In this document: piece after piece, positions 5,330-29,302 of the stretch | Layout of the letters: the number at the start of each line of letters is the position of its first letter | Position numbering within the stretch: position 1 is the first letter of the stretch | Origin: Wenjunlia tyrosinilytica | GTDB lineage: Bacteria > Actinomycetota > Actinomycetes > Streptomycetales > Streptomycetaceae | DNA length: 64,000 bases | Direction of reading: 5' to 3' | NCBI RefSeq assembly: GCF_014646055.1 | Contig: NZ_BMMS01000017.1 | Coordinates: 50,453-114,452 of the forward strand | Program-made: the position numbers and the translations under genes | The notes under the pieces: model-generated | Seen by the model: the letters and a program-made list of their open reading frames with translations, nothing else | What the model was told of the DNA's origin: nothing | The model's database searches: none

Positions 5330-6838
<1,509 letters not shown>

Positions 6839-6964: not shown

Positions 6965-8101
6965 CTATCGCGACAGGGCGGGTGCGGGGTGGAGAGGGAC
7001 GCCGTTGGCGCGCAACACCTCGCGGACGTCGAGGATCAACGGGAACACCTCCTGGTTGCGGTCTTCGCCCTGCTCGTCCCAGGCCCGCTGCTCGGCCTCG
7101 ACTGCCATCCGGTCCTCGGCGAACACCCGTTCGGTGAAGCGGCGGATGAACGGCCAGGCGAGGCGGAGGGCCCCCGGGATCGGCGGCTTAGCGATCATGA
7201 GCAGGCCATAGGCGTGATTGGTGCGCTGTTCGGCGTCTTCCGGTACGTAGGCCGCCCATAGGGAGAACGCCGGGAGTTCGGCGCCCTCGGGGACCGCTTG
7301 AAGCGTCTGGTAGGGGTACTCGGTGCGGACAGTGATGACGTCGGGTTTCCTGCCTCCACTGAGCCCCTCGGCCGAGAGGAGACCAGCGCCGCGGTCCTTC
7401 TTCCCGCCGGCAGGGGTGAAGAGGTACCTGGCCTCCACGAACCGCGGACCCGTTTCGTACCCGAGGAGCGTGGGCTGGACCTTGCCGAGAACGCCCCGGT
7501 GCAGGAACTGGTGATTCATGTCGAGAAGATTTTCGTGCATGAACGAGTAGTGGCAGCGCACGGTTCGCGAGAACGCCATGGTCTTGTACCCGGCGGAATC
7601 GAACTCCGGCAGCTCGGGCAGCGCTGCCGCGTCCGCCTTCTCCGGATCGCCCGGAAAGACGAACACCAGGCCGTACGCTTCGCGGACCGGATAGGCCCGT
7701 ACACCGCGCGGCGGCCGGTCGACGCCCTTGGGAAGATACGGGATCTGCGAGATGCGACCGCTCCCGCGGTAGGCCCAGGCGTGATAACAGCAGCGCAGGA
7801 CCTCGCCTTCCACGGCACCCATGCTCAGTGGCACCTGACGGTGGGCGCACCGGTCCTCCAGCGCATAGACTTCGCCGCTCCCACCGCGGTACAGGACGAT
7901 CCGGTGGCCTGCGAACACGGCAGCGAACGTCTTGCTCCTCGGTACGCTCGCGGATACGGCGACCGGGTACCAGAAATCCGGATCGATCCCAATGCGCCGA
8001 AGGTCCGCGACCGCTCCGGAGCGGTGATCACGAGGACGATGACGGCCGCTCGCCGACCCGGCCGCCCTGGCCCCGTCCCTTGCGGGCTGTGCCTCGGTCA
8101 T
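6965..8101 (-). CDS. Rieske [2Fe-2S] aromatic-ring oxygenase-like protein
   Basis: The 378-residue protein has an N-terminal Rieske domain with CAH (Cys85, His87) and CCYH (Cys104, His107) cluster ligands. A catalytic non-heme iron domain follows with DMNHQFLH (Asp194, His197, His201). This is the layout of terminal oxygenase components that hydroxylate or demethylate small molecules with electrons from a separate reductase, not seen here. ATG 8101 has GAGGGAG upstream; the frame extends to 8140 without support. The gene is upstream of rox on the same strand, but the RAE between them suggests separate control. Confidence 0.82.
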   Translation of the reverse strand: MTEAQPARDGARAAGSASGRHRPRDHRSGAVADLRRIGIDPDFWYPVAVSASVPRSKTFAAVFAGHRIVLYRGGSGEVYALEDRCAHRQVPLSMGAVEGEVLRCCYHAWAYRGSGRISQIPYLPKGVDRPPRGVRAYPVREAYGLVFVFPGDPEKADAAALPELPEFDSAGYKTMAFSRTVRCHYSFMHENLLDMNHQFLHRGVLGKVQPTLLGYETGPRFVEARYLFTPAGGKKDRGAGLLSAEGLSGGRKPDVITVRTEYPYQTLQAVPEGAELPAFSLWAAYVPEDAEQRTNHAYGLLMIAKPPIPGALRLAWPFIRRFTERVFAEDRMAVEAEQRAWDEQGEDRNQEVFPLILDVREVLRANGVPLHPAPALSR

Positions 8102-10136: not shown

Positions 10137-13100
10137 TCACTCCACGAGATCGTTCTGGGCGGTGCAGGCGCGGGCTGCCTCGCAGATCCTCCTCAGAGTG
10201 GGACGGCCGATGAGATCGCGATGCTTGGACTCGAACGCTGCCTTGCCGTGCTCGCCCACGAGGTCGCGCGCGACCTGGTGGAGCATCGTCAGCAGTTCCA
10301 GGGAGTCACCGCCGAGGTGACTGAAGTTCGAGTCGGGGTGGATGGTCTGCGGGTCGGCCTCCAGGATCCTGGCCCAGATCTGTGCCACGTCCTTCTCGAG
10401 TGGATCCCGTCGGCTCTGGTCGTCCGTACGGGGGGCCTGCGTGGTTTGCGCGGTGCTGAAGGCGGCGGGCAGCGCGGCGGTGTCGATCTTCCCGTTCGTG
10501 GTGAGCGGAAAGGTCTCGAGGACGCACACGGCGGCTGGGACGAGGTAGGAGGGCAGGAGCCGCGCGACGTGCTCGCGGAGGCCGTCCGGTGTGGCCGTCC
10601 CGGTGATGTAGGCGCACAGGACCGGTTCCGCGCCCGGGCGTGGGGGGCGGGCGACGGCCACGGCCCGGGTGACGTCCGGGTGGGTCTCCAGCGCCGCATC
10701 GACCTCACCGGGTTCGATGCGGTGCCCTCGTATGGAGACCTGGTCGTCGGTGCGGCCGAGGAACTCCAGTACGCCGTCGGGGGTGAGCCGGGCCCGGTCC
10801 CCGGTGCGGTAGACGCGGGTGCCGTCGGCGAGGTTGCGGAACCGTTCACGGGTCAGATCGGGACGCCCGAGGTAGCCGCGTGCCAGTTGGGTGCCGGCGA
10901 GGTGTATCTCGCCCGTCTCCCCGGGCGGAACCGGAATGCCGCTGGGGCCCAGGAGGTGGACGGCGGTGTTGTCGGTGGGCAGGCCGATGGGGACGGCGTT
11001 CCGGTCGGCGTCGCGCCGCGGGTCGAAGGTGTGGACGATGCAGCCGATGGTGGCCTCGGTGGGGCCGTACTCGTTGATGATTCGGCAGTCCGGGCCGAAC
11101 ATCTCCTGAGCACGGGCGGCCGTGGCGCCGCGCAGTTGCTCGCCCCCGACGACCAGGAGGCGGAAGCCTTTGGGGCGGATGCCGAGAGCGGCGATGAGTT
11201 CGAGGTGGGCGGGGGTGAGTTTGAGGGCGTTCGCGCCGGAGGTGGTGAGCAGCCTTGTCAGAGTGGCGTGGTCGGGCTCTTCGGGGACGAGTGCGACACT
11301 GCCGCCGGACAGCAGCGGTAGCAGGTGCGCGGTGCCGGTCAGGTCGAAGGCGAGCGAGGTGAACATCCCGAACCGGCTGTCCTCGTCGATGCGGTAGCGC
11401 CGGATCGCCCAGCACGCGTAGTCCGCCAGCGCCCCGTGCTCGACCATGACGCCCTTGGGCCTGCCCGTCGACCCGGAGGTGTAGATGACGTACGCCAGGT
11501 CCTGCGGTGTGGGGGCGCCCGGGCCGGGCATCGCCCCGCTGGCCGGCGCGTCCTCGGACAGGAAGGCCACCATGAGGTCATCCAGAACGGGGGCACGGCA
11601 GTGCGGGCCGATCCGGTCCTGCTGCTCGCGGCCGACGAGGCAGAGGCCTGCGCCCGAGTCCGCCAGGATCGAGGCGATGCGGGTGCGGGGATGTCTGGGG
11701 TCCAGCGGCAGATACGCGGCGCCGGCCTTGAGGATCCCCCACAGTCCGGTGATGGCGGCGGCCGTGCGGCCGCCGAGCAGTCCGACGACGGAGCCGCGCC
11801 CTGCGCCGTGCCGCCGCAGTTCCGCGGCGACGGCGTCGGAGCGGCGGTCGAGCTCCGCGTAGCTCAGCGTTCCCTCGGGCCCGGTGAGGGCGACCGCTTC
11901 GGGAGTGCGCTCCACCTGGCGGTGCAGCATCCGGGTGAGTGTCGCCGACGGACCGTGAAGGCGGGGGCCCTTGACCGCCGGGCCGCGGTCGGCCTTGGGT
12001 ACGAGCTTCTCGGCGACGGCGTCGAGAAGCCCCTGTGCCCGCTGGGTGTCCCGAACGGTGCCGGGATCGGGCATGGTGAGCCGGGTGACGCCGCGGAACT
12101 CCGCCGCGACCAGGGCCAGAGGGACGAAGGGGACCTGCTGCGGCAGGGAGTACACCTCGGTGGCCTCGAACCCGGGTGCCTGAAGCTCCTTTTCCTCGAT
12201 GCGGCCCAGATGGGTGATCAGGGCAGTGCACGGGTACCGGCCCAGAGCACGGGTCGCGACCTGCGCCAGACCCAGCGCGGTACTCAAGGGACCGAGCGGG
12301 AGGCGAAGGGCGGCGCGTTCCTCGCCCAGGGCGAGTTCGCAGTGGTTCTCCAGGGCATGCAGGAGGCGCCGGTGCCATTCCTCCCAGGGGTCGCCGGGCC
12401 GGCCGTCGAGGAGGACCGGAAGGCTGAGGTTGGCGGTGGAGCGCAGGCCGCGGCGGTGCCGGCGCAGGTCCACGGGCACCATGACGCGGGCGCGGTCCCC
12501 GGTGGCGTCCGTGAGTGCGGCAGCGGCCTTGGCGATCACCGCCGAGTGCGAGCCGTCGACCATCCGCTCCAGCCATCCGCCACCGCGGACACTGCCCGTT
12601 CCGGTGAACGGGGAACGGAATCGAGGCGTCAGCCGAGAGCGCCGAGCCGGTCTGCCCGTTCCGGCCAGTTCCTGAAGGAGCGCCAGGTCGTACAGCGGCG
12701 AGGGCGCGCCCAGGGGCTCCTCCCCGCGCAGGGCCCGGAACGTGTCCAAAACCCAGTCGAGGACGCCGCGGCCGTCCATCACCGCGTGGTGGGCGCGAAA
12801 GAGCAGCGCGGGCCGTTCCCCCTTGCGCAGCACCACCTCACAGCTCGGTCCACCGCGCGTGTCGAGGACCTGGGAAGACTGCGTGGCGAACGAACGTACG
12901 GTGCGGACGGCGGGCGCCCGTCCGCTGTCCATCCACATCCTGCCGAGTCGTACCAGCCGTGCCCCGGGACAGGCGGCCGCGGACCGGTCGACGGCCTTGC
13001 GCAACTCCTCGGTGGGGATCGTGCCGGTCCCCTCGATCGCGATCTGGATGGCGAACGGCGGAATCAACCGTTCACCGGCAAGGTAGATCCACTCGTTGGG

Positions 13101-13172
13101 GGAGATCGGACGCCGGAAGGGAAGCGGTCGCAGCGACTCGTCCGTGGGGGGACTGTGCCGGTATGTCGTCAT
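10137..13172 (-). CDS. C-A-T nonribosomal peptide synthetase, predicted Asn-specific (LstE-like)
   Basis: The 1011-residue enzyme has a condensation domain (about 20-400, HHAVMDG at 128-134), an adenylation domain (about 420-880, YTSGSTGRPKG core, ending in the NGK motif), and a carrier domain with GGDSLELL (Ser957). Reading the A-domain pocket against GrsA gives DLTKVGEIGK, close to the classical Asn code DLTKLGEVGK and differing from Asp codes by Glu rather than His at position 322. In the lipstatin pathway LstE loads Leu for esterification onto the beta-lactone lipid hydroxyl; here Asn is expected. There is no thioesterase, so the C domain would release the product by ester formation. Confidence 0.88.
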   Translation of the reverse strand: MTTYRHSPPTDESLRPLPFRRPISPNEWIYLAGERLIPPFAIQIAIEGTGTIPTEELRKAVDRSAAACPGARLVRLGRMWMDSGRAPAVRTVRSFATQSSQVLDTRGGPSCEVVLRKGERPALLFRAHHAVMDGRGVLDWVLDTFRALRGEEPLGAPSPLYDLALLQELAGTGRPARRSRLTPRFRSPFTGTGSVRGGGWLERMVDGSHSAVIAKAAAALTDATGDRARVMVPVDLRRHRRGLRSTANLSLPVLLDGRPGDPWEEWHRRLLHALENHCELALGEERAALRLPLGPLSTALGLAQVATRALGRYPCTALITHLGRIEEKELQAPGFEATEVYSLPQQVPFVPLALVAAEFRGVTRLTMPDPGTVRDTQRAQGLLDAVAEKLVPKADRGPAVKGPRLHGPSATLTRMLHRQVERTPEAVALTGPEGTLSYAELDRRSDAVAAELRRHGAGRGSVVGLLGGRTAAAITGLWGILKAGAAYLPLDPRHPRTRIASILADSGAGLCLVGREQQDRIGPHCRAPVLDDLMVAFLSEDAPASGAMPGPGAPTPQDLAYVIYTSGSTGRPKGVMVEHGALADYACWAIRRYRIDEDSRFGMFTSLAFDLTGTAHLLPLLSGGSVALVPEEPDHATLTRLLTTSGANALKLTPAHLELIAALGIRPKGFRLLVVGGEQLRGATAARAQEMFGPDCRIINEYGPTEATIGCIVHTFDPRRDADRNAVPIGLPTDNTAVHLLGPSGIPVPPGETGEIHLAGTQLARGYLGRPDLTRERFRNLADGTRVYRTGDRARLTPDGVLEFLGRTDDQVSIRGHRIEPGEVDAALETHPDVTRAVAVARPPRPGAEPVLCAYITGTATPDGLREHVARLLPSYLVPAAVCVLETFPLTTNGKIDTAALPAAFSTAQTTQAPRTDDQSRRDPLEKDVAQIWARILEADPQTIHPDSNFSHLGGDSLELLTMLHQVARDLVGEHGKAAFESKHRDLIGRPTLRRICEAARACTAQNDLVE

Positions 13173-13246
13173 GCCGTGAATATCCTTGTCATGTGGGTTG
13201 CGTCATCCGAAAGGGCGATCCGAAGTGGCGCTCGACGCGGGCGGCG

Positions 13247-13771
13247 TCAGACGCGCGTTTCCAGGACCCTGCACGGCCACGGCTCCCCCCGCCCGGGAAC
13301 GTGCACGTCAATCGACCGCACCGGACGGAATCCCAGCTTGCGGTAGTGCTCGACCAGGGCACCGTCACCGTCGTAGCAGTCTGTTCGCAGCAGGCTGATC
13401 CCGCGCCGGACGGCCTCGGCACGGGCATCGTCGACGAGGGTCGCGCCGATGCCCCGGCCGGTCGACGACCGGGCCGTCACCAGCAGCATGATGTACAGCT
13501 CCCGTTCGTCGGCAGGCGTCACGTAAGGCTGAGGCGTTTCCGACAGAACGCACACGCCGACGACGGCGCCCTCCAGTTCGGCCACCCTCACTGTCAGGTC
13601 GGTGGTGTACCGCCTGATGCGCCGTACCGAGGCCGGCTGCGAGGACCACGGTGCCGATCCCCATTGCCCTGTCCTGCCCTGATCCACCAGCCATGCCACG
13701 GCGGTGTCCAGCAGGTCTGTCGTGGCGGCGGCGTCGTCCGGTCCACCTGCTCTGATGCGTACGCTGTCCAA
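13247..13771 (-). CDS. GNAT N-acetyltransferase, likely beta-lactone tailoring
   Basis: The 174-residue GNAT has the acetyl-CoA loop motif ARSSTGRGIGATLVDDA and a C-terminal EHYRKLGFRPV block. The TTG at 13771 is favoured because AAGGAG lies 7 nt upstream; a GTG six nt before it sits too close to that site. It lies between the LstD-like and LstE-like genes, 75 nt upstream of the NRPS. In lipstatin biosynthesis a formyltransferase (LstF) caps the amino acid; this enzyme is the obvious candidate to N-acetylate the asparagine instead. An unrelated housekeeping acetyltransferase cannot be excluded. Confidence 0.78.
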   Translation of the reverse strand: MDSVRIRAGGPDDAAATTDLLDTAVAWLVDQGRTGQWGSAPWSSQPASVRRIRRYTTDLTVRVAELEGAVVGVCVLSETPQPYVTPADERELYIMLLVTARSSTGRGIGATLVDDARAEAVRRGISLLRTDCYDGDGALVEHYRKLGFRPVRSIDVHVPGRGEPWPCRVLETRV

Positions 13772-13832
13772 ATTCACACTCCTTCGAGGAAGCACTGGAT
13801 CGGTAATTCGGGTCCGGTGGAAGCCGGCCCGG

Positions 13833-13880
13833 CACCAGGCCCCGACGAAGTGGGCGTGACCGCGGTGTCGGGGCCTGGTG
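13833..13880. terminator. Strong hairpin between LstD-like and GNAT genes
   Basis: Arms CACCAGGCCCCGAC (13833-13846) and its exact complement (13867-13880) form a 14-bp stem with a 20-nt loop. No U-tract follows. It could terminate or attenuate the lactone-forming genes, leaving GNAT-NRPS with separate or reduced expression. Confidence 0.55.
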
Positions 13881-14019
13881 GATCGGCGGGCATGCTCCGC
13901 GCATGCCGGGTCGCTTCCGGGACCGTGGGCACAAGTCGCTCCTGCAACGCGCGGCCGCAAAGGGGCCGCGACCACGTGCTGGTGCCCCTCGATGGGTCAA
14001 CGGTGCCGAGCGGTTCCCC

Positions 14020-15060
14020 TCATGGCTGCCTCACCTTCCGGACGAACTCGTCGACGCCGCCGACGGCGTCGATCCATGCCGTCAGCTGCTCCATGCCGGT
14101 CTCGTGGTCCACCACCGGTGCGGTGAGATCACGCCGCGCCGCCGAGGTGTCGTACGTCGCCGAGCGGGTCAGCAGGGCCAGCGAGTAGCGGGAGAGGGGC
14201 GGCGAGGTCCGTTCGGCCAGCGGCGGCAGCTTCCAGACCATGTCGGCCGTGAAGGCGACGGCCCGCAGCAGCCCGAGTGGTACCCGCTTGGTGGGCGGTG
14301 TGCCGCCGAAGCGCGCGGCCAGGTCGGCCAGTGTGCTCCACACCTCCACCGGCTCGGGGTCCGCGACGAAGTACGCCCTGCCGCCGACACCGCCGGCCCG
14401 GGCCGCACGGACACTGGCCGCGGCAGCGTTGTCGCAGTGGCAGAGCGAGGCGTACACCGGCCTGCCCCCGGACAGGTCCGGCAGGCTGCCGGTCATCATT
14501 TTCGCGAGCAGCCGCGGCAGGAAGCCCGAGTGGTCGCGCGGGCCCCACACGGCCCGCGGACGCAGCGCGACCGTCGTGAAGTCCGGGCGGTCGGCGGCCA
14601 GCACCAGCCGCTCCGCGGCGGCCTTCGTCTCCGAGTAGAGGTTGAGGAAGCGCCGCGGATAGGGTTCGCTCTCGTCGATGTCGAGCCGGTCGCCGTCGCG
14701 GATTCCCATCAGAGCGCTGGGACTGCTGATGAAGACGAACCGGCGTGCCCCGCCCTGCCGAGCCGCGGTCATCAGGCGCCGGGTGCCTTCGACGTTCTCC
14801 TCCCGGAACTGGGCGCGGGTACCCCGGTCCGTGACCCGGGCCGCGCTGTGGTGCACCACGTCGACGCCGAGCGCCGCGGCGCGCAGTGACGCGGTGTCCC
14901 GCAGGTCCCCGTACGCGAACTCGATGCCCGGCACCGTGCGCAGGTGGCCGAGGTCGCTCTCCTTTCGTACCAGCACACGCACCTCGTCACCGGCCCGTAC
15001 ACAGGCGTCGACGATGTGGCTGCCCAGGAAGCCGGACGCGCCCGTCACCAGAACCCTCAT
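14020..15060 (-). CDS. NAD(P)-dependent 2-alkyl-3-ketoacid reductase (OleD/LstD-like)
   Basis: This extended SDR (346 residues) has the Rossmann motif TGASGFLGSH at the N-terminus and the catalytic YSETK (Tyr-x3-Lys) with an upstream Ser-rich FISSPSA strand. It resembles 3-beta-hydroxysteroid dehydrogenase/OleD proteins, which reduce the 2-alkyl-3-keto acid from the head-to-head Claisen step to a beta-hydroxy acid before lactonisation. The ATG at 15060 overlaps the upstream stop by 4 nt (ATGA), so it is coupled to the lactone synthetase gene. The longer frame to 15102 overlaps the neighbour and is unlikely. Confidence 0.85.
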   Translation of the reverse strand: MRVLVTGASGFLGSHIVDACVRAGDEVRVLVRKESDLGHLRTVPGIEFAYGDLRDTASLRAAALGVDVVHHSAARVTDRGTRAQFREENVEGTRRLMTAARQGGARRFVFISSPSALMGIRDGDRLDIDESEPYPRRFLNLYSETKAAAERLVLAADRPDFTTVALRPRAVWGPRDHSGFLPRLLAKMMTGSLPDLSGGRPVYASLCHCDNAAAASVRAARAGGVGGRAYFVADPEPVEVWSTLADLAARFGGTPPTKRVPLGLLRAVAFTADMVWKLPPLAERTSPPLSRYSLALLTRSATYDTSAARRDLTAPVVDHETGMEQLTAWIDAVGGVDEFVRKVRQP

Positions 15061-17027
15061 GCCGAAGCGGCCTTCCTCCCGCGCCGGGCCGTCCGCCACC
15101 ACGTCGCACCGAAGAGCATGGTGAGAGCGGCGGTGGCCCGTGGTGCGCGTCCGGTGGCCAACTCATGCTCCGCGCGCAGGGCGGCCGGTATCTGCGCCGC
15201 ATGGACGACGATGCTCAACAAGGCGTCGATCCACCACAGCGCGGTGAGCGCCGGATGGTCCCAGGGCAGCAGCGGCCACGCCGCCAGGTATGCCCAGCCG
15301 GCCAGCGGGACGGTGCGCAGCGCCAGGTCCGCCGCGGTCGGGCGGCGGCTTCCCGTGAGCCGGTCCTCGGCCCAGCCCGTCAGCAACTCCCTGCGGATCT
15401 TGGCATTGTGACGGATGTCCACCGGGAACGCCGGGTGCGGCAGGAAGTCCGCGATCGACGCGGTCATGGAGTTGGCCGCGCCCAGGTCGCGCAACTCGCC
15501 CTCGATCCGGGGCCACTGGCGGGTGTCGGTGCCCGGCACGAGTTCCACGCAGATCACCGGTCGCTGCCGGCCGTGCGGCCCGACGCCCACCAGGGCGGTG
15601 CGCCGCACCTGCGGATGGGCGTTGAAGACGTTCTCGCATCGCACCGTGTGCAGATCGCCGTCGGCCGTGCGGACCCGGTGGCTCTTGCGCCCGCAGAACC
15701 AGACGCGTCCCTCCTCGTCGATCCAACCGACATCGCCGGTGCGGTGCCAGCGGCCGTCACCGTCCTGGATCTTGTGCTCGGCGTCGGCCCGCGGGCTGCG
15801 GAAGTACCGGGGGCTGACCGCCGGGCCGCGTACGGCTATCTCGCCCAGTTCCCCCGGCTCGACCGCCAGTGCGGGCGTCCAGTGGGCCACGGGTGCGTCG
15901 CCGATCACGATGGTGCGGATGGTGACGCCGGGCGCGGCGCGGCCCAGGCAGACGCCGAGACCGGCGGCCGGCCCATTGGCAGGCCCGCCCCATGCCTCCC
16001 GGCTCTCCAGAAGCGCGATCGGCAGGGCCTCCGTCGCGCCGTAGGTGCTGTACACCCGTGCCTCGTCCGGCAGTACGGCGCGCACCTGCCCCATCAGTGC
16101 GGGGCTGACCGGGGCGCCACCGGAGATGACCAGGCGCAGCGAGGGCAGCGGCGTCCCGGTGGCGGCCAGATGGGCCGCGAGCGGGGCAAGGAGCGCCGGG
16201 GAGGCGAACATCGCGTTCACCGAGAAGCGGCAGATGGCGTCGGTGAGCGCTGCCGGGTCGGCGGCGCCGACCCTGGCCATGTTCATCCTCGGCACCACCA
16301 CGGTGCGCCCGGCCATCAGATCGAGCAGTCCCATCAGCGGCATGGTGACCAAGGTGGTGTCCATGTCGTCCGTGAAGTGGGCCTGCTCGACGCTGTCCGC
16401 CATCCCGCGCAGCATGCCGACGGTGAGCTCGACGGGCTTGGCCGGTCCGGTGCTGCCGGTGGTGTAGCCGATCATGGCGAGGTCGTCCGGTCCGCTCTGC
16501 ACGGCGGGCAGATGCTCCCTGCCGGCGCCGAGGGCGATCAGCTCCCGCAGTCCGCTGCCGTCTCTGCGGCCCACCGTGACCGGGCTGCGCACCCCGGCGA
16601 ACGCGCGCGGGCGAAGTCGGCGCAGCACATGCGCCGACGGTACGCCGATGAAGGCCTCCACACCCACCCGGCGGATGCAGTCGAGCATGCGGTTCAATCC
16701 CATCCCGGGATCGACCACCACCGGTACGGCGCCTGTGTGCATCATCGCGAAGACCAGCGTCAGCAGGTCGCCGCCGGGCGGCACCAGCACGGCGGTGCGG
16801 GTGCCGCGGCGGATGCCGCGCGCCTCGAGGCCGGCGGCGCAGGCCGCGACGCGGGAGGCGAGTTCCCCGTAGGAGACCGTGACGTAGGCCGATCGGTCTC
16901 CCGGTTCGCCGCGGTGCCGGTCGGGGTGGACGACGGCCGGCCTGTCGGGGGCAAGGGTTGCGTGCCGGGCGAGGAGCCCGGCCGGCGGGGAGTCCCGCCG
17001 GCCGGAGCGTGAGATTGCGGCGGGCAT
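15057..17027 (-). CDS. Beta-lactone synthetase, OleC/LstC-type AMP-ligase with membrane tail
   Basis: This adenylating enzyme (656 residues) activates a 2-alkyl-3-hydroxy acid with ATP and closes the beta-lactone ring. The P-loop is YTTGSTGPAKPVE (188-200); the acyl-AMP STYGATEALP motif and the HRTGDVGWID hinge region are present, and a Lys lies in HNAKIRRE (Lys543). OleC proteins are usually about 550 residues. The extra ~100-residue C-terminus holds several hydrophobic segments (AGWAYLAAWPLLPW, LWWIDALLSIVVHAAQI, ATAALTMLFGATWW) and probably anchors the enzyme at the membrane. The start overlaps the upstream KAS-III stop (TGATG). Confidence 0.87.
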   Translation of the reverse strand: MPAAISRSGRRDSPPAGLLARHATLAPDRPAVVHPDRHRGEPGDRSAYVTVSYGELASRVAACAAGLEARGIRRGTRTAVLVPPGGDLLTLVFAMMHTGAVPVVVDPGMGLNRMLDCIRRVGVEAFIGVPSAHVLRRLRPRAFAGVRSPVTVGRRDGSGLRELIALGAGREHLPAVQSGPDDLAMIGYTTGSTGPAKPVELTVGMLRGMADSVEQAHFTDDMDTTLVTMPLMGLLDLMAGRTVVVPRMNMARVGAADPAALTDAICRFSVNAMFASPALLAPLAAHLAATGTPLPSLRLVISGGAPVSPALMGQVRAVLPDEARVYSTYGATEALPIALLESREAWGGPANGPAAGLGVCLGRAAPGVTIRTIVIGDAPVAHWTPALAVEPGELGEIAVRGPAVSPRYFRSPRADAEHKIQDGDGRWHRTGDVGWIDEEGRVWFCGRKSHRVRTADGDLHTVRCENVFNAHPQVRRTALVGVGPHGRQRPVICVELVPGTDTRQWPRIEGELRDLGAANSMTASIADFLPHPAFPVDIRHNAKIRRELLTGWAEDRLTGSRRPTAADLALRTVPLAGWAYLAAWPLLPWDHPALTALWWIDALLSIVVHAAQIPAALRAEHELATGRAPRATAALTMLFGATWWRTARRGRKAASA

Positions 17028-18010
17028 CAGCGGCGGGTCCCGTCGTCCGCGAGCCGGTAGAAGGCGGCGGCCGAGGTCAGCCCCGCGCCGACGGCCACGA
17101 ACAGGACCCGGTCGTGGCCCGTGAGCTGATCGGTCTCCTGTGCCTGCTTGTAGCCGTGGACGAGCGCCGAGGTGTGCGGATCGCCGTGGACGCCGTCGAC
17201 GGTGACGGCGCCGTCGGCCGGCAGGCCCAGGCGCTTGGCGAGCTGTGCGGCGAACCCGGGTGCCAGGCCCAGGCGCTTGGCGAGCTCTGCGGCGAACCCG
17301 GGCGAGGGCTGCGAGGTGATCAGCAGGGTGCGGTCGAGGGCGACCGGCCCCGTGTCGTCGGTCCCGGAGTTCTGCGCCGCCAGCGTCGCAAGGACCGCGT
17401 CGACGGCGAGATCGAGCATGCGGTCGAGTACGTCGTCGTCGCGGTCGATCACGATGGTGTTTCGCCCCGTGGGGCCGGCCTCGCGCAGTGGGAGATAGCC
17501 GTTGACTCCGTGCCTGCCCGGCAGGGACCGGTGGTGCACACGGCCGAAGCCGCGATCGTCGTCGGTGTGCTCGAGGAGCAAGGCGGCTCCGGTGCTCGCG
17601 TACGGGAACTCGTCCGTGCCGGCGCGGGACCGGTCCATCGACGGGTGGGTGTCCGCGGAGACCACCATCACCCGGCGGGCGCTGCCGGTGGAGAGCAGGG
17701 CATCCGCTGCCTGCACGGCGTTGAGCATGCCGCAGGCCCCGTTCATCAGGTCGAACGAGAAGCCCGCTCGCTGGTCGGGCCAGTGGAGGTAATCGAGGTT
17801 GATGCCGATGCGCTTCGAGATCAGCGCGGCGATGGACGGCTCGACGATGTTGAGGTCGCGGTAGACGCCGACGTTGATGAGGACATCGACGTCCGCGGCG
17901 TCGATCCCGGCCCGTCCCAGGCACACGAGGCCTGCGGCGGCCGCCTGGCCGATCGAGCTGCCGGAGACGTCGGCCGGGCTGAGTGCGGCCGAGGTGATGA
18001 CGGTGGCCAT
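17027..18010 (-). CDS. KAS-III-like protein, LstB-type partner subunit
   Basis: This 327-residue thiolase-fold protein is the probable second subunit of a heterodimeric acyl-CoA condensing enzyme. Cys93 sits in MNGACGML, the nucleophile position. The usual HQ..R block is replaced by TSQPSPGF, and the NT.AS block by GDPHTSAL, so the canonical His and Asn are missing. Residues 237-264 contain a 14-residue tandem duplication (PGFAAELAKRLGLA then PGFAAQLAKRLGLP). In lipstatin, LstA and LstB form a heterodimer joining C8 and C14 acyl chains. It starts 3 nt after the partner's stop. Confidence 0.85.
   Translation of the reverse strand: MATVITSAALSPADVSGSSIGQAAAAGLVCLGRAGIDAADVDVLINVGVYRDLNIVEPSIAALISKRIGINLDYLHWPDQRAGFSFDLMNGACGMLNAVQAADALLSTGSARRVMVVSADTHPSMDRSRAGTDEFPYASTGAALLLEHTDDDRGFGRVHHRSLPGRHGVNGYLPLREAGPTGRNTIVIDRDDDVLDRMLDLAVDAVLATLAAQNSGTDDTGPVALDRTLLITSQPSPGFAAELAKRLGLAPGFAAQLAKRLGLPADGAVTVDGVHGDPHTSALVHGYKQAQETDQLTGHDRVLFVAVGAGLTSAAAFYRLADDGTRR
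17222..17300. repeat. 42-bp in-frame tandem duplication in the LstB-like gene
   Basis: Two near-identical copies of a 42-bp unit begin at 17222 and 17264 and differ at only a few bases. Each encodes 14 residues, so the reading frame is kept. The low divergence suggests a recent slippage or unequal-exchange event. Confidence 0.85.
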
Positions 18011-18013
18011 GGG

Positions 18014-19063
18014 TCACACCTCCAGGGAGGAGACGGTCGCGGACAGGAAACCGGTCACCACGCCTGAGGCGGCGGGCACCATCAGCACCTTCGAGCCTGT
18101 GGGTATTCGGCCCTCCGCGAGCGCCTGATGCAGCACGAGATAGTGCGAGGTGCTCGCGGTGTTGGCGAGCTTGTCGACGACGGTGAGCGACTGCGGCATG
18201 GGGGTTTCGAAGCTGCGCTCACCGATGGTGTTCATCAAGTCGACGAACCGGCTGCCGACCTGGTGATGGATGATGAAGTCGTATCCCTCGTCGGCGAACC
18301 TGCTCCCGCGCTCGGCCAGCCTGTCGCTGTGGAAGGACGGCCACAGCGAGAGCCGCTCCCGCGCGTGCATCTCCTTGTTGTCGGTGTACATCGCGATATC
18401 GCCGGTGTCGTCGCTGGGCATGCCCAGGCACAGGTGCGAGTACTGCGAGCAGGTCATCAGCTCGACCTCATGGATCATGTCCCGGTCGTCGGTGGCACGG
18501 TCCATCACGACGGCGACGGCGGAGTCGCCCACGGACAACGACGCGAACTGCGGATCGCGGCTGTCGTCCATCTCGCGCGCGGCCGTGAAGGCGATGGGGG
18601 TGATGTGCTCACCGCTGACCACCAGGCCGTTGCGCACCGCACCGCCCCGGATCATCCGGTCCAGCAGGTAGACGCCGGTCATCATGCCCGCGCAGGCGTT
18701 GGAGACGTCGAAGCGGGCGGCGTCGCGCGCGCCGATCTCCTCGGCGACGCGGTGGGCGAAGGAGGGCTCGAACTGCAGGCGCCGTCCGTCCGACATGCGG
18801 CTGATGGAGCAGGAGATCACGACGTCGAGCTCCTGCGGCGCGTACGCCGAACGGTCCAGGCTGTCCCGGGCCGCCGACACGGCCATCGTGAGGCTGTTCT
18901 CCGGGACCTCGGCGGTGTCGTCGGCGACGCGACGCTCGGTCATACCCGTGATCTTGACGAAGTCGAACGTCGGCGCCTTCTCCAGACGTTCGAGGAGTTC
19001 CCCGGTGCCCATCACCGTCGTGGGGAGGTAGGACCCGATGGCTTCTAACCTGCTGTGGTTCAC
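18014..19063 (-). CDS. KAS-III-like acyl-CoA condensing enzyme, LstA/OleA-type
   Basis: This 349-residue 3-oxoacyl-ACP synthase III homologue probably carries out the non-decarboxylative head-to-head Claisen condensation of two fatty acyl-CoAs that builds the alpha-branched beta-keto acid. It retains a full triad: Cys124 in SNACAGMM, His267 in IIHHQVGSR, and Asn301 in ANTASTS. The GTG at 19063 is chosen: protein similarity begins at NHSRLEAIGSYLP, and an AAGAGAG site lies upstream; the frame extends to 19786 without coding character. It heads the presumed lst-like operon. Confidence 0.87.
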   Translation of the reverse strand: MNHSRLEAIGSYLPTTVMGTGELLERLEKAPTFDFVKITGMTERRVADDTAEVPENSLTMAVSAARDSLDRSAYAPQELDVVISCSISRMSDGRRLQFEPSFAHRVAEEIGARDAARFDVSNACAGMMTGVYLLDRMIRGGAVRNGLVVSGEHITPIAFTAAREMDDSRDPQFASLSVGDSAVAVVMDRATDDRDMIHEVELMTCSQYSHLCLGMPSDDTGDIAMYTDNKEMHARERLSLWPSFHSDRLAERGSRFADEGYDFIIHHQVGSRFVDLMNTIGERSFETPMPQSLTVVDKLANTASTSHYLVLHQALAEGRIPTGSKVLMVPAASGVVTGFLSATVSSLEV

Positions 19064-24836: not shown

Positions 24837-26081
24837 GTGTCCATTCAGCTTCCCCCGTCCGCAGCCCCGCGATCCGCCTACCCCGCGGACGTGCTCCCCG
24901 ACGCGCTGTGTCGTCGATTGCTGGAGCTGACCCGGGCCGAGGTACCGGTGTCGGCATATGTGTACGACGGTGAGGTCGCCGCCGAGCGTGCTCGCGAGTT
25001 GCGAAGCGCTCTTCCGGAATGGGCCGCCGTCTACTACGCGGTGAAGGCGAACTCCTTCCCGGGTGTGGTCGAGGCGCTCGCTCCGCACGTCGACGGGTTC
25101 GAGGTCGCCTCCCGCGCCGAACTCGAACTCGCAGTCCACGCGAAGGCGGTGGCCGCGAGCACCCCGGTTCCCGTGGTGGCCGCCGGCCCCGCGAAGTCAC
25201 TTCCCGTGCTCACTGCCCTGGTCCGGGCCGGAGTCGAGGCAATCAATGCCGAGAGCCTGCTCGAACTCCATCGGATCAGCAGGATCGCGGTCGCCGAGGG
25301 TGTCCGTGCCCGGGTGGCGCTTCGCGTCAACCCGGCGACCATCCCGGTCACCGGTTCTCTGAACATGGGAGGCGTCCCCTCCCAGTTCGGGGTGGCGGAG
25401 CCGGACGTTCCCGACGTGCTGCGCGAGGCCATGCGTCTGCCGGGCCTGGACATGGCCGGCTTCCACATCCACGCCGCTTCCAACAACCTCGACGCCGAGT
25501 CGCACGCCGCGTACTTGCGGTGGTGCGTGGAGTGGAGCACACGGACCGCCCGGAGGAACGGGATCGACCTGCGGCATGTCGACATCGGCGGCGGCATCGG
25601 CGTCGCGTTCGAGGGCGAGAAGCCCTTCGACGTGGCCCGCTTCGGCGAACTGGCCGGCCAGGTCGACGTCCCCGCGCAGGTGAAGGTGGTTCTGGAGCCC
25701 GGGCGTTTCCTGGTCGCCGACTGCGGCTGGTACGCCGCGGAGGTGACGGATGTGAAGCAGTCCTACGGCGAGCAGTTCCTGGTCCTGCGCGGTGGCATCA
25801 ACCACTTCCAGCTGCCCACGTCCTGGGACATCGTCCACAACATCGCGGTACTGCCCGTCGAGAACTGGCCCGAGGGCTGTCCGCGGCCGGCGGCCGAGAA
25901 CTCACGGGTGACCGTGGTCGGCGAGCTGTGCACCCCGGAGGACACCCTGCTCCGCGACGTCCTGGTGGACCGTGCGCGCGCCGGAGACCTCGTCGTCTTC
26001 CCCTGCGCGGGCTCCTACGGGTGGGAGTTCGCCATGCACCGCTTCCTCGGCCATCCCCCTGCCGAACGTCACCTTCTCTGA
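24837..26081 (+). CDS. Type III (alanine racemase-fold) PLP decarboxylase, AcsE/SbnH-like
   Basis: The 414-residue fold-type III PLP enzyme has Lys70 in YYAVKAN as the Schiff-base lysine, the phosphate-binding DIGGGIG, an EPGRFLVAD strand, and the C-terminal GELCTPEDTLL block with the active-site Cys. Relatives decarboxylate diaminopimelate, ornithine or, in siderophore pathways (AcsE, SbnH), citryl-diamino-acid intermediates. As first gene of an iron-regulated NIS cluster a siderophore role is likely. Its substrate is unclear because a separate diaminobutyrate decarboxylase is encoded two genes on. The GTG start has GAGG upstream. Confidence 0.85.
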   Translation: MSIQLPPSAAPRSAYPADVLPDALCRRLLELTRAEVPVSAYVYDGEVAAERARELRSALPEWAAVYYAVKANSFPGVVEALAPHVDGFEVASRAELELAVHAKAVAASTPVPVVAAGPAKSLPVLTALVRAGVEAINAESLLELHRISRIAVAEGVRARVALRVNPATIPVTGSLNMGGVPSQFGVAEPDVPDVLREAMRLPGLDMAGFHIHAASNNLDAESHAAYLRWCVEWSTRTARRNGIDLRHVDIGGGIGVAFEGEKPFDVARFGELAGQVDVPAQVKVVLEPGRFLVADCGWYAAEVTDVKQSYGEQFLVLRGGINHFQLPTSWDIVHNIAVLPVENWPEGCPRPAAENSRVTVVGELCTPEDTLLRDVLVDRARAGDLVVFPCAGSYGWEFAMHRFLGHPPAERHLL

Positions 26082-26201
26082 GACACAGGGCACGTTCTCC
26101 GAGACACAGGACAAGCCGCACCCCACCGCAAGCCCCATCGGGGCGGCGGCGTCGTGCGCCCGCCCTTCCTTCTCCCCCAATCCCCCTTGGAGCCGAACAC
26201 C

Positions 26202-27617
26202 ATGACCGCCCGCCCCACCGCCCTCACCGACGTCCGCCCCACCGTCGCGGACCCCGCCGCCGTGCGCCGCGCCGACGCCGTCCTGGAGCGTCAGCGCGGC
26301 CGCGAGTCCTCCGCACGCACCTACGCCCGCAGCTTCCCCATCGTTCCCGCCCGTGCGCACGGCATGACGGTCGAGGGCACCGACGGCCGCCGCTACCTCG
26401 ACTGCCTCTCGGGGGCCGGGACGCTGGCCCTGGGCCACAACCATCCGATCGTGCTGGAGGCTGTTCAGCGGACCCTCACCAGCGGGGCCCCACTGCACGT
26501 CCTGGACCTGGCAACGCCGGAGAAGGACGCGTTCACCGACGCGCTGTTCGCCACCTTGCCCAGCGGCTTCGCCGACAGGGCCCGCATCCACTTCTGCGGG
26601 CCCACCGGGACCGACGCGGTCGAGGCCGCGTTCAAGCTGATGCAGACCGCCACCGGGCGGCGCGGACTGCTCGCGTTCACGGGCGCCTACCACGGCATGA
26701 CGGCCGGCGCCCTGGCCGCCTCCGGCGGTGTCACCACCAAGCAGCCGGTGCCGGGGATCGCCGCGGACGTGACGAGGCTGCCCTACCCGTACTCCTACCG
26801 TTGCCCGTTCGGTGTCGGCGGCGAGCACGGTGCCCAGTTGTCCGCCCGGTACACCGAGCGGCTGCTCGACGACCCCAACGGCGGCGTCGTACCGCCGGCC
26901 GCGATGATCGTCGAAGCGGTCCAGGGCGAGGGTGGCGCGGTGCCCGCACCGGACGCCTGGCTGCGCGAGATGCGCCGCATCACGGCGGAGCGGGGGATCC
27001 CGCTGATCGCCGACGAGGTGCAGACCGGTGTCGGACGCACGGGCGCCTTCTGGGCGGTGGAGCACAGCGGGATCGTGCCGGACGCGATGGTGATGTCCAA
27101 GGCGATCGGCGGCAGCCTGCCGCTCGCGGTGATCGTCTACCACGAGGACTACGACGGCTGGCTGCCCGGCGCTCACACCGGCACCTTCCGTGGCAACACC
27201 CTCGCCATGGCGGCCGGTACCGCGACCCTGCGGTACGTCGCGAAGGAGGGCCTGGCGGAGCGGGCGGCGGCCGTCGGCGCCGCGATGACGGCACGTCTCG
27301 AGGCCCTGAGCTCCCAACTGCCCGCGATCGGTGACGTACGCGGCCGCGGCCTGATGATCGGTGTCGAGCTGGTCGACCCCGAGGCCGAGCCGGACGCGTG
27401 CGGTGCCCGCCCGGCCGCTCCCCGGATCGCCGCACAGGTGCGCGCCGCCTGCCTCGAGCGCGGCCTCATCGTGGAACTCGGTGGCCGCTACGACTCGACC
27501 GCACGGCTGCTGCCCCCGCTGACCGTCACCGACGAGCAGGTGGAAGCGGTTCTGGACCGGCTGACCGACGCCATCGCCTCGGTGACGGCCGCTCGGCTCG
27601 CGGGAGCCCAGGCATGA
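26202..27617 (+). CDS. Diaminobutyrate--2-oxoglutarate aminotransferase (RhbA-like)
   Basis: The 471-residue class III PLP aminotransferase should convert aspartate semialdehyde and glutamate to L-2,4-diaminobutyrate. It shows the DCLSGAGTLALGHNHP N-terminal block, GPTGTDAVEAAFKL, ADEVQTGVGRTG and the PLP lysine in VMSKAIGG. The ATG at 26202 is preceded by GGAG; the frame starting at 26154 lacks support. The stop overlaps the next start (ATGA). With the next gene it forms the RhbA/RhbB pair making 1,3-diaminopropane. Confidence 0.87.
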   Translation: MTARPTALTDVRPTVADPAAVRRADAVLERQRGRESSARTYARSFPIVPARAHGMTVEGTDGRRYLDCLSGAGTLALGHNHPIVLEAVQRTLTSGAPLHVLDLATPEKDAFTDALFATLPSGFADRARIHFCGPTGTDAVEAAFKLMQTATGRRGLLAFTGAYHGMTAGALAASGGVTTKQPVPGIAADVTRLPYPYSYRCPFGVGGEHGAQLSARYTERLLDDPNGGVVPPAAMIVEAVQGEGGAVPAPDAWLREMRRITAERGIPLIADEVQTGVGRTGAFWAVEHSGIVPDAMVMSKAIGGSLPLAVIVYHEDYDGWLPGAHTGTFRGNTLAMAAGTATLRYVAKEGLAERAAAVGAAMTARLEALSSQLPAIGDVRGRGLMIGVELVDPEAEPDACGARPAAPRIAAQVRAACLERGLIVELGGRYDSTARLLPPLTVTDEQVEAVLDRLTDAIASVTAARLAGAQA

Positions 27618-29302
27618 CACGTGAGCTCCACGGTCCGCGGTCCACCGCTGCGGTCGCCGATACCACCCCGGCCGCCGTCCACGGCAAGCACAACGCACGG
27701 GGCGGGGCGGGTGCGACGCCTTCCCGGAACGGCCGAGGCCACGCACCGGCGCCTGCGGCCCGGCCCGACGCTCTCGGCGAAGCCGCGGCCGGCCTGCTGC
27801 GCACCGCCCTGCCAGCGAAGGCCCGCGCGCGCACCGCCCCGCTGTCCGGAGGTCAGGACGGTCCCGGCGCGCTCGAACCCCTGCTGCGGAGCGTGCTGGA
27901 AGCCCTCGCCGAGGGCGCGGTGCGGCGCGGCGGGCCGGTTCCCGCCGGAACGCCGGGCGAGCTCGAAGCGGACGTGCTGCGGGTCTTCGCCGAAACGGGA
28001 GGCGATGACGCACTCCCCCGGCTGACCGAACTGCTCGCTCACGGCAGCGCCGATCCCGCCGACCCGTCCTGCGCCGCGCACCTGCACTGCCCCCCGCTGG
28101 CCGTCGCCGTGGCCGCCGACCTCGCCGTCTGCGCGCTCAACCCCTCCCAGGACTCCTGGGACCAGGCCCCCGCCGCCACGGCCCTGGAGACCGCGCTGCT
28201 GCGGGAGCTGGCGGAGCTCGTCGGGTACGACCCGGCGCAGGCAACGGGAGTGCTCACCTCCGGCGGCACGGAATCCAACCTCATGGGCCTCATGCTCGCC
28301 CGTGACCGGATCCTCGGCCGGCGCTCGGGGCGTCAGGTCGAGCTGAGCGGTGTGTCCGGCACGGGTCCGCATCCGCGGGTCTTCGCCTCGGCCGCCGCCC
28401 ACTTCTCGGTCCAGCGGTCGGCCGCCCTGCTGGGTCTCGGCGAGGACGCGGTCGTTCCCGTCCCGGTCGACCGCGACCTTCGCATGAAGCCGGAGGCACT
28501 GGCCTCAGCACTGCGCGAACGCGTCGCACGCGGCGAACTGCCACTGGCGGTCGTGGCCACCGCCGGCACCACCGACACCGGGGCGGTCGACCCGCTGCCG
28601 ACCTGCGCGGCGCTGGCCGCCGAGTACGGGGCCTGGCTGCACGTGGACGCCGCCTACGGCGGCGGTGCCCTGCTGTCCGACGAGCTCTCCCCGCTGCTGG
28701 ACGGGATCGCTCTGGCCGACTCCGTCTCCCTGGACTGGCACAAGCTGGGCTGGCAGCCGGCCGCCGCGGGCGTCTTCCTGGTCCGGCGGGCACAGACCTA
28801 CGCCTCCCTCGCGCGGCGTGCGGTGTACCTCAACCCGACCGACGACGAGGAGGCCGGCTATCCCAGCCTGCTCGGCCTGTCGTTGCGGACCACCCGCCGC
28901 GCCGACGCCTTCAAGATCGCCGTCACACTGCGCACGCTCGGCCGCGACGGCCTGGGCCGGCTCGTGAACGCCTGCCATGAACTCGCGTGCGGCGCGGCGC
29001 GGGCCGTGCGGGCCCATCCCCGGCTGGAACTGCACACGGACCCGGTGCTGACGGCCTTGCTCTTCCGCTACGTGCCCGAGGGTGCCGACCCCGCTGACAC
29101 CGACCGGGTGAACGCGGCGCTGCGGCGCAGGCTGCTGCGTGAGGGCCGGGCCGTCGTCGGCCGCACCGAACTCCCGGGCGAAGGACCCGGCCGGGTCCGG
29201 CTCAAGCTCACGCTGCTCAACCCCCACACCACGCCTGCCGAGGTCGAACGGCTGCTCCACGCGGTCGCCGCGGCGGGACAGGCCGAGGAGGAAAGCCAGT
29301 GA
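27614..29302 (+). CDS. L-2,4-diaminobutyrate decarboxylase (RhbB-like)
   Basis: This group II PLP-dependent decarboxylase (562 residues) is predicted to turn diaminobutyrate into 1,3-diaminopropane. It shows the glutamate-decarboxylase-family blocks TSGGTESNLMGLMLARD, HVDAAYGGGALL and the PLP lysine in SLDWHKLGWQP. The first ~90 residues are Ala/Arg-rich and poorly conserved, so initiation inside the frame is possible; ATG 27614 is kept because it overlaps the upstream stop (ATGA). Coupled to the following synthetase by a GTGA overlap. Confidence 0.87.
   Translation: MTRELHGPRSTAAVADTTPAAVHGKHNARGGAGATPSRNGRGHAPAPAARPDALGEAAAGLLRTALPAKARARTAPLSGGQDGPGALEPLLRSVLEALAEGAVRRGGPVPAGTPGELEADVLRVFAETGGDDALPRLTELLAHGSADPADPSCAAHLHCPPLAVAVAADLAVCALNPSQDSWDQAPAATALETALLRELAELVGYDPAQATGVLTSGGTESNLMGLMLARDRILGRRSGRQVELSGVSGTGPHPRVFASAAAHFSVQRSAALLGLGEDAVVPVPVDRDLRMKPEALASALRERVARGELPLAVVATAGTTDTGAVDPLPTCAALAAEYGAWLHVDAAYGGGALLSDELSPLLDGIALADSVSLDWHKLGWQPAAAGVFLVRRAQTYASLARRAVYLNPTDDEEAGYPSLLGLSLRTTRRADAFKIAVTLRTLGRDGLGRLVNACHELACGAARAVRAHPRLELHTDPVLTALLFRYVPEGADPADTDRVNAALRRRLLREGRAVVGRTELPGEGPGRVRLKLTLLNPHTTPAEVERLLHAVAAAGQAEEESQ

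What the first reader, a model, noticed from the sequence alone, without database searches (positions are those of the whole stretch)
10137..19063. Predicted esterastin-type beta-lactone lipase inhibitor cluster
Six minus-strand genes follow the lipstatin order: two KAS-III proteins (A, B), OleC-type lactone synthetase (C), OleD-type reductase (D), then a tailoring acyltransferase and an NRPS (E). No OleB beta-lactone decarboxylase is present, so the lactone should be kept rather than lost to an olefin. The NRPS code reads Asn and the acyl cap enzyme is an acetyltransferase. Esterastin, known from Streptomyces lavendulae, is the N-acetyl-L-asparagine ester counterpart of lipstatin (N-formyl-leucine). 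Gene content and product structure agree at three independent points.
Basis: partly seen in the sequence, partly recalled or inferred. Interest (0 to 1): 0.95.

Follow-up and report, generated by a model that had tools for sequence, protein, structure and literature searches.

The report
Predicted esterastin-type lipase-inhibitor operon
This six-gene operon is built like the one for lipstatin (parent of the obesity drug orlistat), but its amino-acid-loading enzyme carries an asparagine-type code and an acetyltransferase-family gene stands in place of the usual formyltransferase, so it is predicted to make esterastin or a close relative, a lipase inhibitor known since 1978.

Summary
Six co-directional genes (10137-19063, minus strand) encode an LstA-like KAS-III with Cys124/His267/Asn301, an LstB-like partner with Glu57 and no cysteine at the nucleophile site, an OleC-type beta-lactone synthetase, an OleD-type reductase, a GNAT and a one-module NRPS. 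The A-domain code is DLTKVGEIGK, Asn-type. Of 21 distinct complete lst-type clusters compared (window included), 19 carry an LstF-type formyltransferase; the two exceptions, the window and Streptomyces sp. HNM0575, both read Asn and carry mutually unrelated-looking GNATs. The window genome has no close LstF-like protein and no convincing OleB. Trees conflict strongly: the window's backbone gene sits with clusters reading another amino acid, its NRPS with Asn-type NRPSs from a distant backbone clade, so the module was probably exchanged. Against exact identity: chain lengths cannot be read, the GNAT family is common with unknown substrate (166 of 391 genomes of HNM0575's genus), and a third Asn-type cluster (L031) keeps a formyltransferase. 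Verdict: lst-type cluster nearly certain; N-acyl-Asn ester likely; N-acetyl and esterastin itself plausible, untested.

The parts
18014..19063 (-). gene A, LstA-like KAS-III (349 aa), catalytic Cys124/His267/Asn301
   Evidence: the spacing equals that of published LstA C128/H271/N305
17027..18010 (-). gene B, LstB-like KAS-III partner (327 aa), Glu57 kept, Ala at the nucleophile position
   Evidence: published LstB E60
17222..17302 (-). 42-bp in-frame tandem duplication (14 aa) inside gene B, absent from the five relatives checked
15057..17027 (-). gene C, OleC/LstC-type beta-lactone synthetase (656 aa)
15060..15350 (-). C-terminal extension of gene C (residues 560-656), hydrophobic by eye, no Pfam match at E<=1
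   Evidence: beyond the stretch matched by NF006754 (19-559)
14020..15060 (-). gene D, OleD/LstD-type 2-alkyl-3-oxoalkanoate reductase (346 aa)
13247..13777 (-). GNAT-family acetyltransferase (176 aa) in place of LstF; predicted N-acetylation of the Asn amine
10137..13172 (-). gene E, single-module NRPS (1011 aa)
11958..13172 (-). N-terminal domain of E (residues 1-405) with a HHxxMDG motif; predicted ester-forming acyltransferase, weak WS/DGAT resemblance
10488..11924 (-). adenylation domain of E, code DLTKVGEIGK (Asn-type)
10260..10391 (-). carrier-protein (PP-binding) domain of E
   Evidence: residues 928-971

Best explanation
This is a lipstatin-type (lst) beta-lactone operon predicted to make an N-acetyl-asparaginyl ester of the lipstatin-type beta-lactone, that is esterastin or a close homologue. 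Inferred route, by analogy with the lst pathway: the A/B heterodimer joins two fatty acyl-CoAs without decarboxylation (Cys of A, Glu of B); D reduces the 3-keto group; C adenylates the acid and closes the beta-lactone, which is kept because no OleB is present; the NRPS loads asparagine on its carrier and its unusual N-terminal domain esterifies it onto the side-chain hydroxyl; the GNAT acetylates the asparagine nitrogen. Shown: gene content, order, catalytic residues, the Asn-type code, absence of a close LstF-like protein, and the phylogenetic conflict. Inferred: every reaction, the timing of N-acetylation, chain lengths and expression.
For: KAS-III pair with the LstA/LstB residue pattern: of 27 locus rows examined (one cluster counted twice, L069/L112), 27 keep A's Cys, His and Asn and 26 keep B's Glu; 3 of the 30 loci in hand (L029, L030, L032) were not given to this check (reference residues in PMC12141560, passages). 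Identity of 55-82% for A and 54-87% for D across the lst loci. Code DLTKVGEIGK; of the 119 best-listed NRPS homologues 75 start DLTK and 67 of these have Glu, 7 His and 1 Ala at the seventh position, and papers seen in passages assign DLTKVGHI to Asp in surfactin and place DLTKIGEVGK among the Asn/cyanoalanine codes. Formyltransferase in 19 of 21 complete clusters, a GNAT in the other 2, both Asn-type. No close LstF-like protein in the window genome: two hits, 31% over 73 aa and 41% over 48 aa. Two of the four nearest GNAT homologues come from strains that also hold Asn-type E (DLTKIGEIGK) and C: NPDC057910, all three on a contig listed as 15,071 bases, and SLBN-118, all on a contig listed as 3,988,041 bases. 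The acetyl/formyl exchange tracks the product in nocobactins (PMC7413640, passages).
Against: The GNAT belongs to a common family of unknown substrate: 166 of 391 genomes of HNM0575's genus carry a relative at E<=1e-25, best 58% identity. NPDC096198 has a 70% relative (P0250) with no C or E from that strain among the 120 listed for each. L031 (S. hygroscopicus ATCC 21589) reads Asn yet has a formyltransferase, so Asn and acetyl are not obligately linked. DLTKVGHVGK is shared by Asp and Asn domains in one survey. The GNAT junctions are looser than those of A-D. Gene B carries a 14-aa duplication absent from five relatives. Chain lengths are not readable from sequence. No S. toxytricini lst sequence was in hand.
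Confidence: 0.74

Rival explanations
1. The operon makes a lipstatin-type beta-lactone with an asparagine ester, but the GNAT is not the N-cap enzyme; the nitrogen is free or capped by a housekeeping enzyme, and the GNAT is a passenger or self-protection gene.
For: The GNAT family is widespread outside lst clusters, a 70% relative occurs in a strain with no listed C or E, and the HNM0575 cluster uses a different GNAT.
Against: It sits in the same direction between D and E; no formyltransferase was found in the window, and no close one in the genome; close GNAT relatives co-occur with Asn-type E and C in two other strains.
Confidence: 0.14
2. The product is an N-acyl-aspartate ester or an ester of another amino acid; the code is misread.
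For: Asp and Asn domains can share DLTK-type codes, and the GrsA anchor positions were recalled, not aligned to a solved structure.
Against: The Asp codes seen in papers have His at the seventh position where this one has Glu; exactly this code is found in 42 of 119 listed homologues.
Confidence: 0.08
3. The operon no longer makes anything, for example because the duplication in gene B breaks the heterodimer or because the genes are silent (this can be true together with the main reading of what it was built to make).
For: A 42-bp duplication in B is absent from the five relatives checked.
Against: All reading frames are open, catalytic residues are intact and the duplication is in frame.
Confidence: 0.08
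4. An ole-type hydrocarbon pathway: the lactone is decarboxylated to an olefin.
For: C and D are homologous to OleC and OleD.
Against: No OleB in the operon and at best a 33%, 44.5-bit hit on another contig; the NRPS and cap gene have no role in that pathway as described; KAS-III is split into the LstA/LstB pair.
Confidence: 0.02

Closest known systems
Lipstatin (lst) gene cluster, Streptomyces toxytricini (LstA-LstF)
   Same: KAS-III heterodimer with Cys/His/Asn in A and Glu in B, then OleC-type synthetase, OleD-type reductase and a single-module NRPS; the published lst gene order is recalled, and seen here in the related loci.
   Different: Asn-type NRPS, where lipstatin carries leucine (recalled); a GNAT between D and E replaces the formyltransferase found in 19 of 21 related clusters. 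S. toxytricini itself was not in hand; an annotated plasmid-borne S. globosus cluster served as a stand-in.
Esterastin (Streptomyces lavendulae MD4-C1), compound
   Same: Recalled structure, an N-acetyl-L-asparagine ester of a lipstatin-type beta-lactone, matches the predicted loading and capping enzymes.
   Different: Compound only; no gene cluster for it was seen in the listings. Its producer genome was not available.
Streptomyces sp. HNM0575 cluster (L069/L112)
   Same: Same A-D order, Asn-type NRPS (68% A-domain identity) and a GNAT with no formyltransferase.
   Different: Backbone genes only 46-63% identical; its GNAT follows E and shows only 26% identity over 57 aa (E=0.03) to the window's.
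Streptomyces hygroscopicus ATCC 21589 cluster (L031)
   Same: Same order and identical Asn-type code.
   Different: Keeps an LstF-type formyltransferase, so would make an N-formyl-Asn analogue.
Ole olefin pathway and nocardiolactone clusters
   Same: Homologous OleC and OleD enzymes; some Nocardia loci also match the C-terminal extension of C (matches to about residue 646).
   Different: The ole pathway has OleB; an NRPS and cap gene are not part of the ole route as described (nocardiolactone gene content was not examined).

Membership tests
lst (lipstatin-type) beta-lactone cluster | Two adjacent KAS-III genes, one with Cys/His/Asn, the partner with a catalytic Glu and no nucleophile | tested here: met
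   A C124/H267/N301, B E57 with Ala at the Cys position; reference residues
lst (lipstatin-type) beta-lactone cluster | OleC-type synthetase and OleD-type reductase downstream in one operon | tested here: met
   the strict OleC and OleD equivalog cut-offs are not reached (479 against 900 bits, 195 against 580)
lst (lipstatin-type) beta-lactone cluster | Single-module NRPS for the ester amino acid | tested here: met
lst (lipstatin-type) beta-lactone cluster | LstF-type formyltransferase | tested here: not met
   absent from the window, no close one in the genome; a GNAT is present instead, so it is filed as a variant and not as a lipstatin producer
lst (lipstatin-type) beta-lactone cluster | No OleB | tested here: met
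   none in the operon; genome best 33%, 44.5 bits
esterastin biosynthesis | NRPS selects asparagine | tested here: met
   code DLTKVGEIGK; prediction only, no assay, and Asp is not excluded
esterastin biosynthesis | N-acetyl cap enzyme | tested here: inconclusive
   GNAT present in the operon; its substrate cannot be told from sequence
esterastin biosynthesis | Acyl chains and compound mass of esterastin | not testable with these tools
   needs LC-MS of the strain or an expression host
ole hydrocarbon pathway | OleB beta-lactone decarboxylase | tested here: not met

The most novel reading that the evidence does not exclude
Esterastin-type lactones are a chimera made by evolution more than once: a fixed beta-lactone warhead operon (A-D) exchanges an interchangeable amino-acid and N-cap cassette, and acetylation arose at least twice by recruiting non-orthologous GNATs in place of the formyltransferase (window/SLBN-118/NPDC057910 type, and HNM0575 type).
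Probability: 0.55. Interest if true: 0.65.

Novelty: new variant of a known kind. Interest (0 to 1): 0.58.

Why it matters
It gives esterastin, described in 1978, a candidate gene set that can be tested by expression. The related clusters form a natural series in which amino acid (Asn, the DIFALG type, the DLM.QG type) and cap (formyl, predicted acetyl) vary on one warhead, which is a practical guide for making orlistat-like lipase inhibitors with other ester groups. It also points to an N-terminal NRPS domain that Pfam does not assign and that is the best candidate for forming the ester.

Tried and rejected
Tried without result: structure prediction of the N-terminal domain of E was not accepted. 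A profile of that domain against PDB sequences found nothing at E<=1; Pfam at E<=1 gave only a weak WS/DGAT match (window E=0.055; 8 of 22 members, best 1.7e-4), while OsmC matched 10 of 22 (best 0.015) and five further families one to three members each, so the ester-forming role is an inference. The lipstatin operon paper (PMC4249243) is not held. Attempts to reach the SLBN-118 cluster with the genome search failed; the same genomes seem to be drawn each time.

Considered and rejected: an ole hydrocarbon pathway; the reading that the GNAT is an orthologue of the HNM0575 one; the genes below 10137 (LytR-CpsA-Psr protein, Rieske oxygenase, rifampin-monooxygenase-like protein) as cluster members, since they had no partner in the rough gene calls of the other 25 loci compared.

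Rows dropped: of 30 loci compared, three repeat others (L112=L069, L118=L029, L119=L030, judged by equal contig length and equal scores), L126 and L127 are not lst clusters, L029, L030, L032 and L034 end inside the NRPS, and the NRPS match of L043 lies elsewhere on the other strand; that leaves 20 plus the window. The trees used the window, these 20 loci and 17 C/E pairs matched by organism and identical listed contig length, which is an inference; SLBN-118 was left out because it has two C proteins on one contig.
Full report
Observation. The window is 71% G+C and lies in an 8.49-Mb genome; its own genus has only two held genomes, and its family is the one that holds the HNM0575 and S. kaniharaensis genomes (these names are inferred from equal contig lengths). 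Six minus-strand genes occupy 10137-19063 with tight or overlapping junctions from A to D, then, after 242 bases, the GNAT gene and, after 74 more, the NRPS gene. Domain searches give KAS-III, KAS-III, AMP-binding (fatty acid CoA ligase family NF006754 over its cut-off, two olefin beta-lactone synthetase models second and third, both under theirs), 3Beta_HSD (OleD models first in NCBIfam, under their cut-offs), GNAT, and an A domain with carrier protein.

The condensing pair. A review seen in passages (PMC12141560) gives the LstA triad as C128, H271, N305 and the catalytic residue of LstB as E60. Here A has C124, H267, N301, the same spacings of 143 and 34 residues, and B has E57 with alanine where A has its cysteine. 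In the 27 locus rows checked (L069 and L112 are one cluster), A's three residues are kept in 27 and B's Glu in 26; the nucleophile position of B is Ala in 25, Ser in L126 and Gly in L127, and these last two are not lst clusters. Three loci in hand (L029, L030, L032) were not given to that check.

Amino acid. The ten-residue code, located by motif anchors recalled for GrsA, is DLTKVGEIGK. Among the 21 complete clusters three read this (window, L031, L069), twelve read D(I/V)(F/I)A... (in L125 the last residue is not covered), five read DLM.QG., and one (L036) reads DGHLAGVIVK. Of 1210 homologues of E the best 120 were listed, one being the window's own; in the other 119, 42 have exactly this code and 75 begin DLTK. 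Surfactin's Asp module is DLTKVGHI, and one survey places DLTKIGEVGK with the Asn-derived cyanoalanine module and reports DLTKVGHVGK for both Asp and Asn. Glu instead of His at the seventh position therefore favours Asn but does not exclude Asp.

Cap enzyme. Of 21 distinct complete clusters, 19 have a formyltransferase (PF00551 in the five tested, L031, L108, L114, L116 and L123; the rest by tblastn with those of L031, L108 and L114), after E in 18 and between D and E in L116. The two without it are the window and HNM0575, both Asn-type and each with a GNAT. The two GNATs match at best over 57 residues at 26% (E=0.03), so independent recruitment is the simpler reading, though a very diverged pair is not excluded. 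The window genome holds no close LstF-like protein (two hits, 26.6 and 20.8 bits). Close relatives of the window GNAT (68-71%) are four listed proteins; two come from strains that also hold E proteins with code DLTKIGEIGK and C proteins, on contigs of the same listed length (NPDC057910, 15,071 bases; SLBN-118, 3,988,041 bases, which at 4 Mb shows co-occurrence and not close linkage). A third (P0250, NPDC096198) has no listed C or E, and the fourth (P0249) is from an unnamed contig. The wider GNAT family is common: 166 of 391 genomes of HNM0575's genus at E<=1e-25, best 58%. A parallel exists: in nocobactins an N-acetyltransferase or an N-formyltransferase gene marks acetylated or formylated products (PMC7413640, passages).

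Evolution. In the A-domain tree the window groups at full support with L031, L069, NPDC002730, NPDC093102 and three strains of its own backbone clade, and the DLM.QG group is separate; NPDC048419, its weakly supported neighbour in the C tree, falls outside this group. The Asn label needs 1 change there, although its single origin is itself poorly supported (35/0; 33% of 200 bootstrap trees). The tree of the N-terminal domain gives the same eight-row group (100/99), with 2 changes for the Asn label. The NRPS has thus probably moved between backbones, or the backbone under it was replaced.

The N-terminal domain of E. It has no Pfam match at E<=0.001 and its profile no PDB sequence match at E<=1. 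It keeps the second His and the Asp of an HHxxxDG-like motif in all 22 aligned members (the first His is not conserved) and weakly resembles wax ester synthases. It is my candidate for ester formation. The domain is wider than lst clusters: relatives at E<=1e-15 occur in 28 of 70 and 34 of 392 genomes of two genera, and two more lie in this genome, one of them a stand-alone protein beside an NRPS with code DLTKVGEVGK.

Distribution. LstB-like proteins at E<=1e-10 were found in 21 of 394 family genomes, the window's own included, two of which (L126, L127) proved not to be lst clusters. One lst cluster sits on a 562-kb plasmid of S. globosus LZH-48, annotated KAS-III, hypothetical, AMP-binding, epimerase family, NRPS, formyltransferase.

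Literature. In the held library esterastin appears in 4 papers. Two were read by passages: PMC10616362 (a putative MS annotation in strain B5) and PMC7449042 (isolation source and lipase inhibition); the other two were seen only as listings. (20 of 59 papers listed in the last) showed no title or abstract start that names an esterastin gene cluster. Subscription journals are mostly not held, so this is not proof of absence. The esterastin and lipstatin structures and the published lst gene order are recalled.

Verdict. An lst-type beta-lactone operon, nearly certain; N-acyl-Asn ester, about 0.85; N-acetyl, about 0.74; esterastin itself with its exact chains, about 0.5.

Noticed in passing
window 17222-17302: 42-bp in-frame tandem duplication in gene B (97% match) not seen in five relatives (L028, L108-L111); real change or assembly artefact.
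   Followed up: partly
window 24837-32657: Siderophore-like operon: PLP decarboxylase, diaminobutyrate transaminase, diaminobutyrate decarboxylase-like protein, IucA/IucC synthetase, and a frame that looks like an N-hydroxylase by eye.
   Followed up: no
window 5330-6757: FAD monooxygenase over the cut-off of the rifampin monooxygenase model (931 against 800 bits), next to a Rieske oxygenase at 6965-8101.
   Followed up: no
L108, L109, L110, L111, L028: Sister lst clusters with formyltransferase and an unassigned A-domain code (DLMGQGVVAK, DLMSQGALAK, DLMGQGIVAK): a third amino-acid type whose substrate I could not name.
   Followed up: partly
L222 4359-5843 and 7533-12005: In the same genome, a stand-alone protein like the N-terminal domain of E beside a 1490-aa NRPS frame with code DLTKVGEVGK and a stretch that weakly matches gene D (28%).
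   Followed up: partly
L223 6209-9346: A second full-length E-like NRPS (47%) with code DVTNIIEIGK, no lst backbone genes found in the 19 kb around it, near an amino acid permease and a fumarase/aspartase-type lyase.
   Followed up: partly
L224 (NZ_CP030864.1): A complete formyltransferase-type lst cluster lies on a 562-kb plasmid of Streptomyces globosus, typed as mobilizable; A-like genes at 58-62% identity also occur on other Streptomyces and Rhodococcus plasmids.
   Followed up: no
window 15060-15350: C-terminal extension of about 95 residues on gene C, hydrophobic by eye and without a Pfam match, inside the stretch matched in some Nocardia loci but not in the Xanthomonas ones.
   Followed up: no
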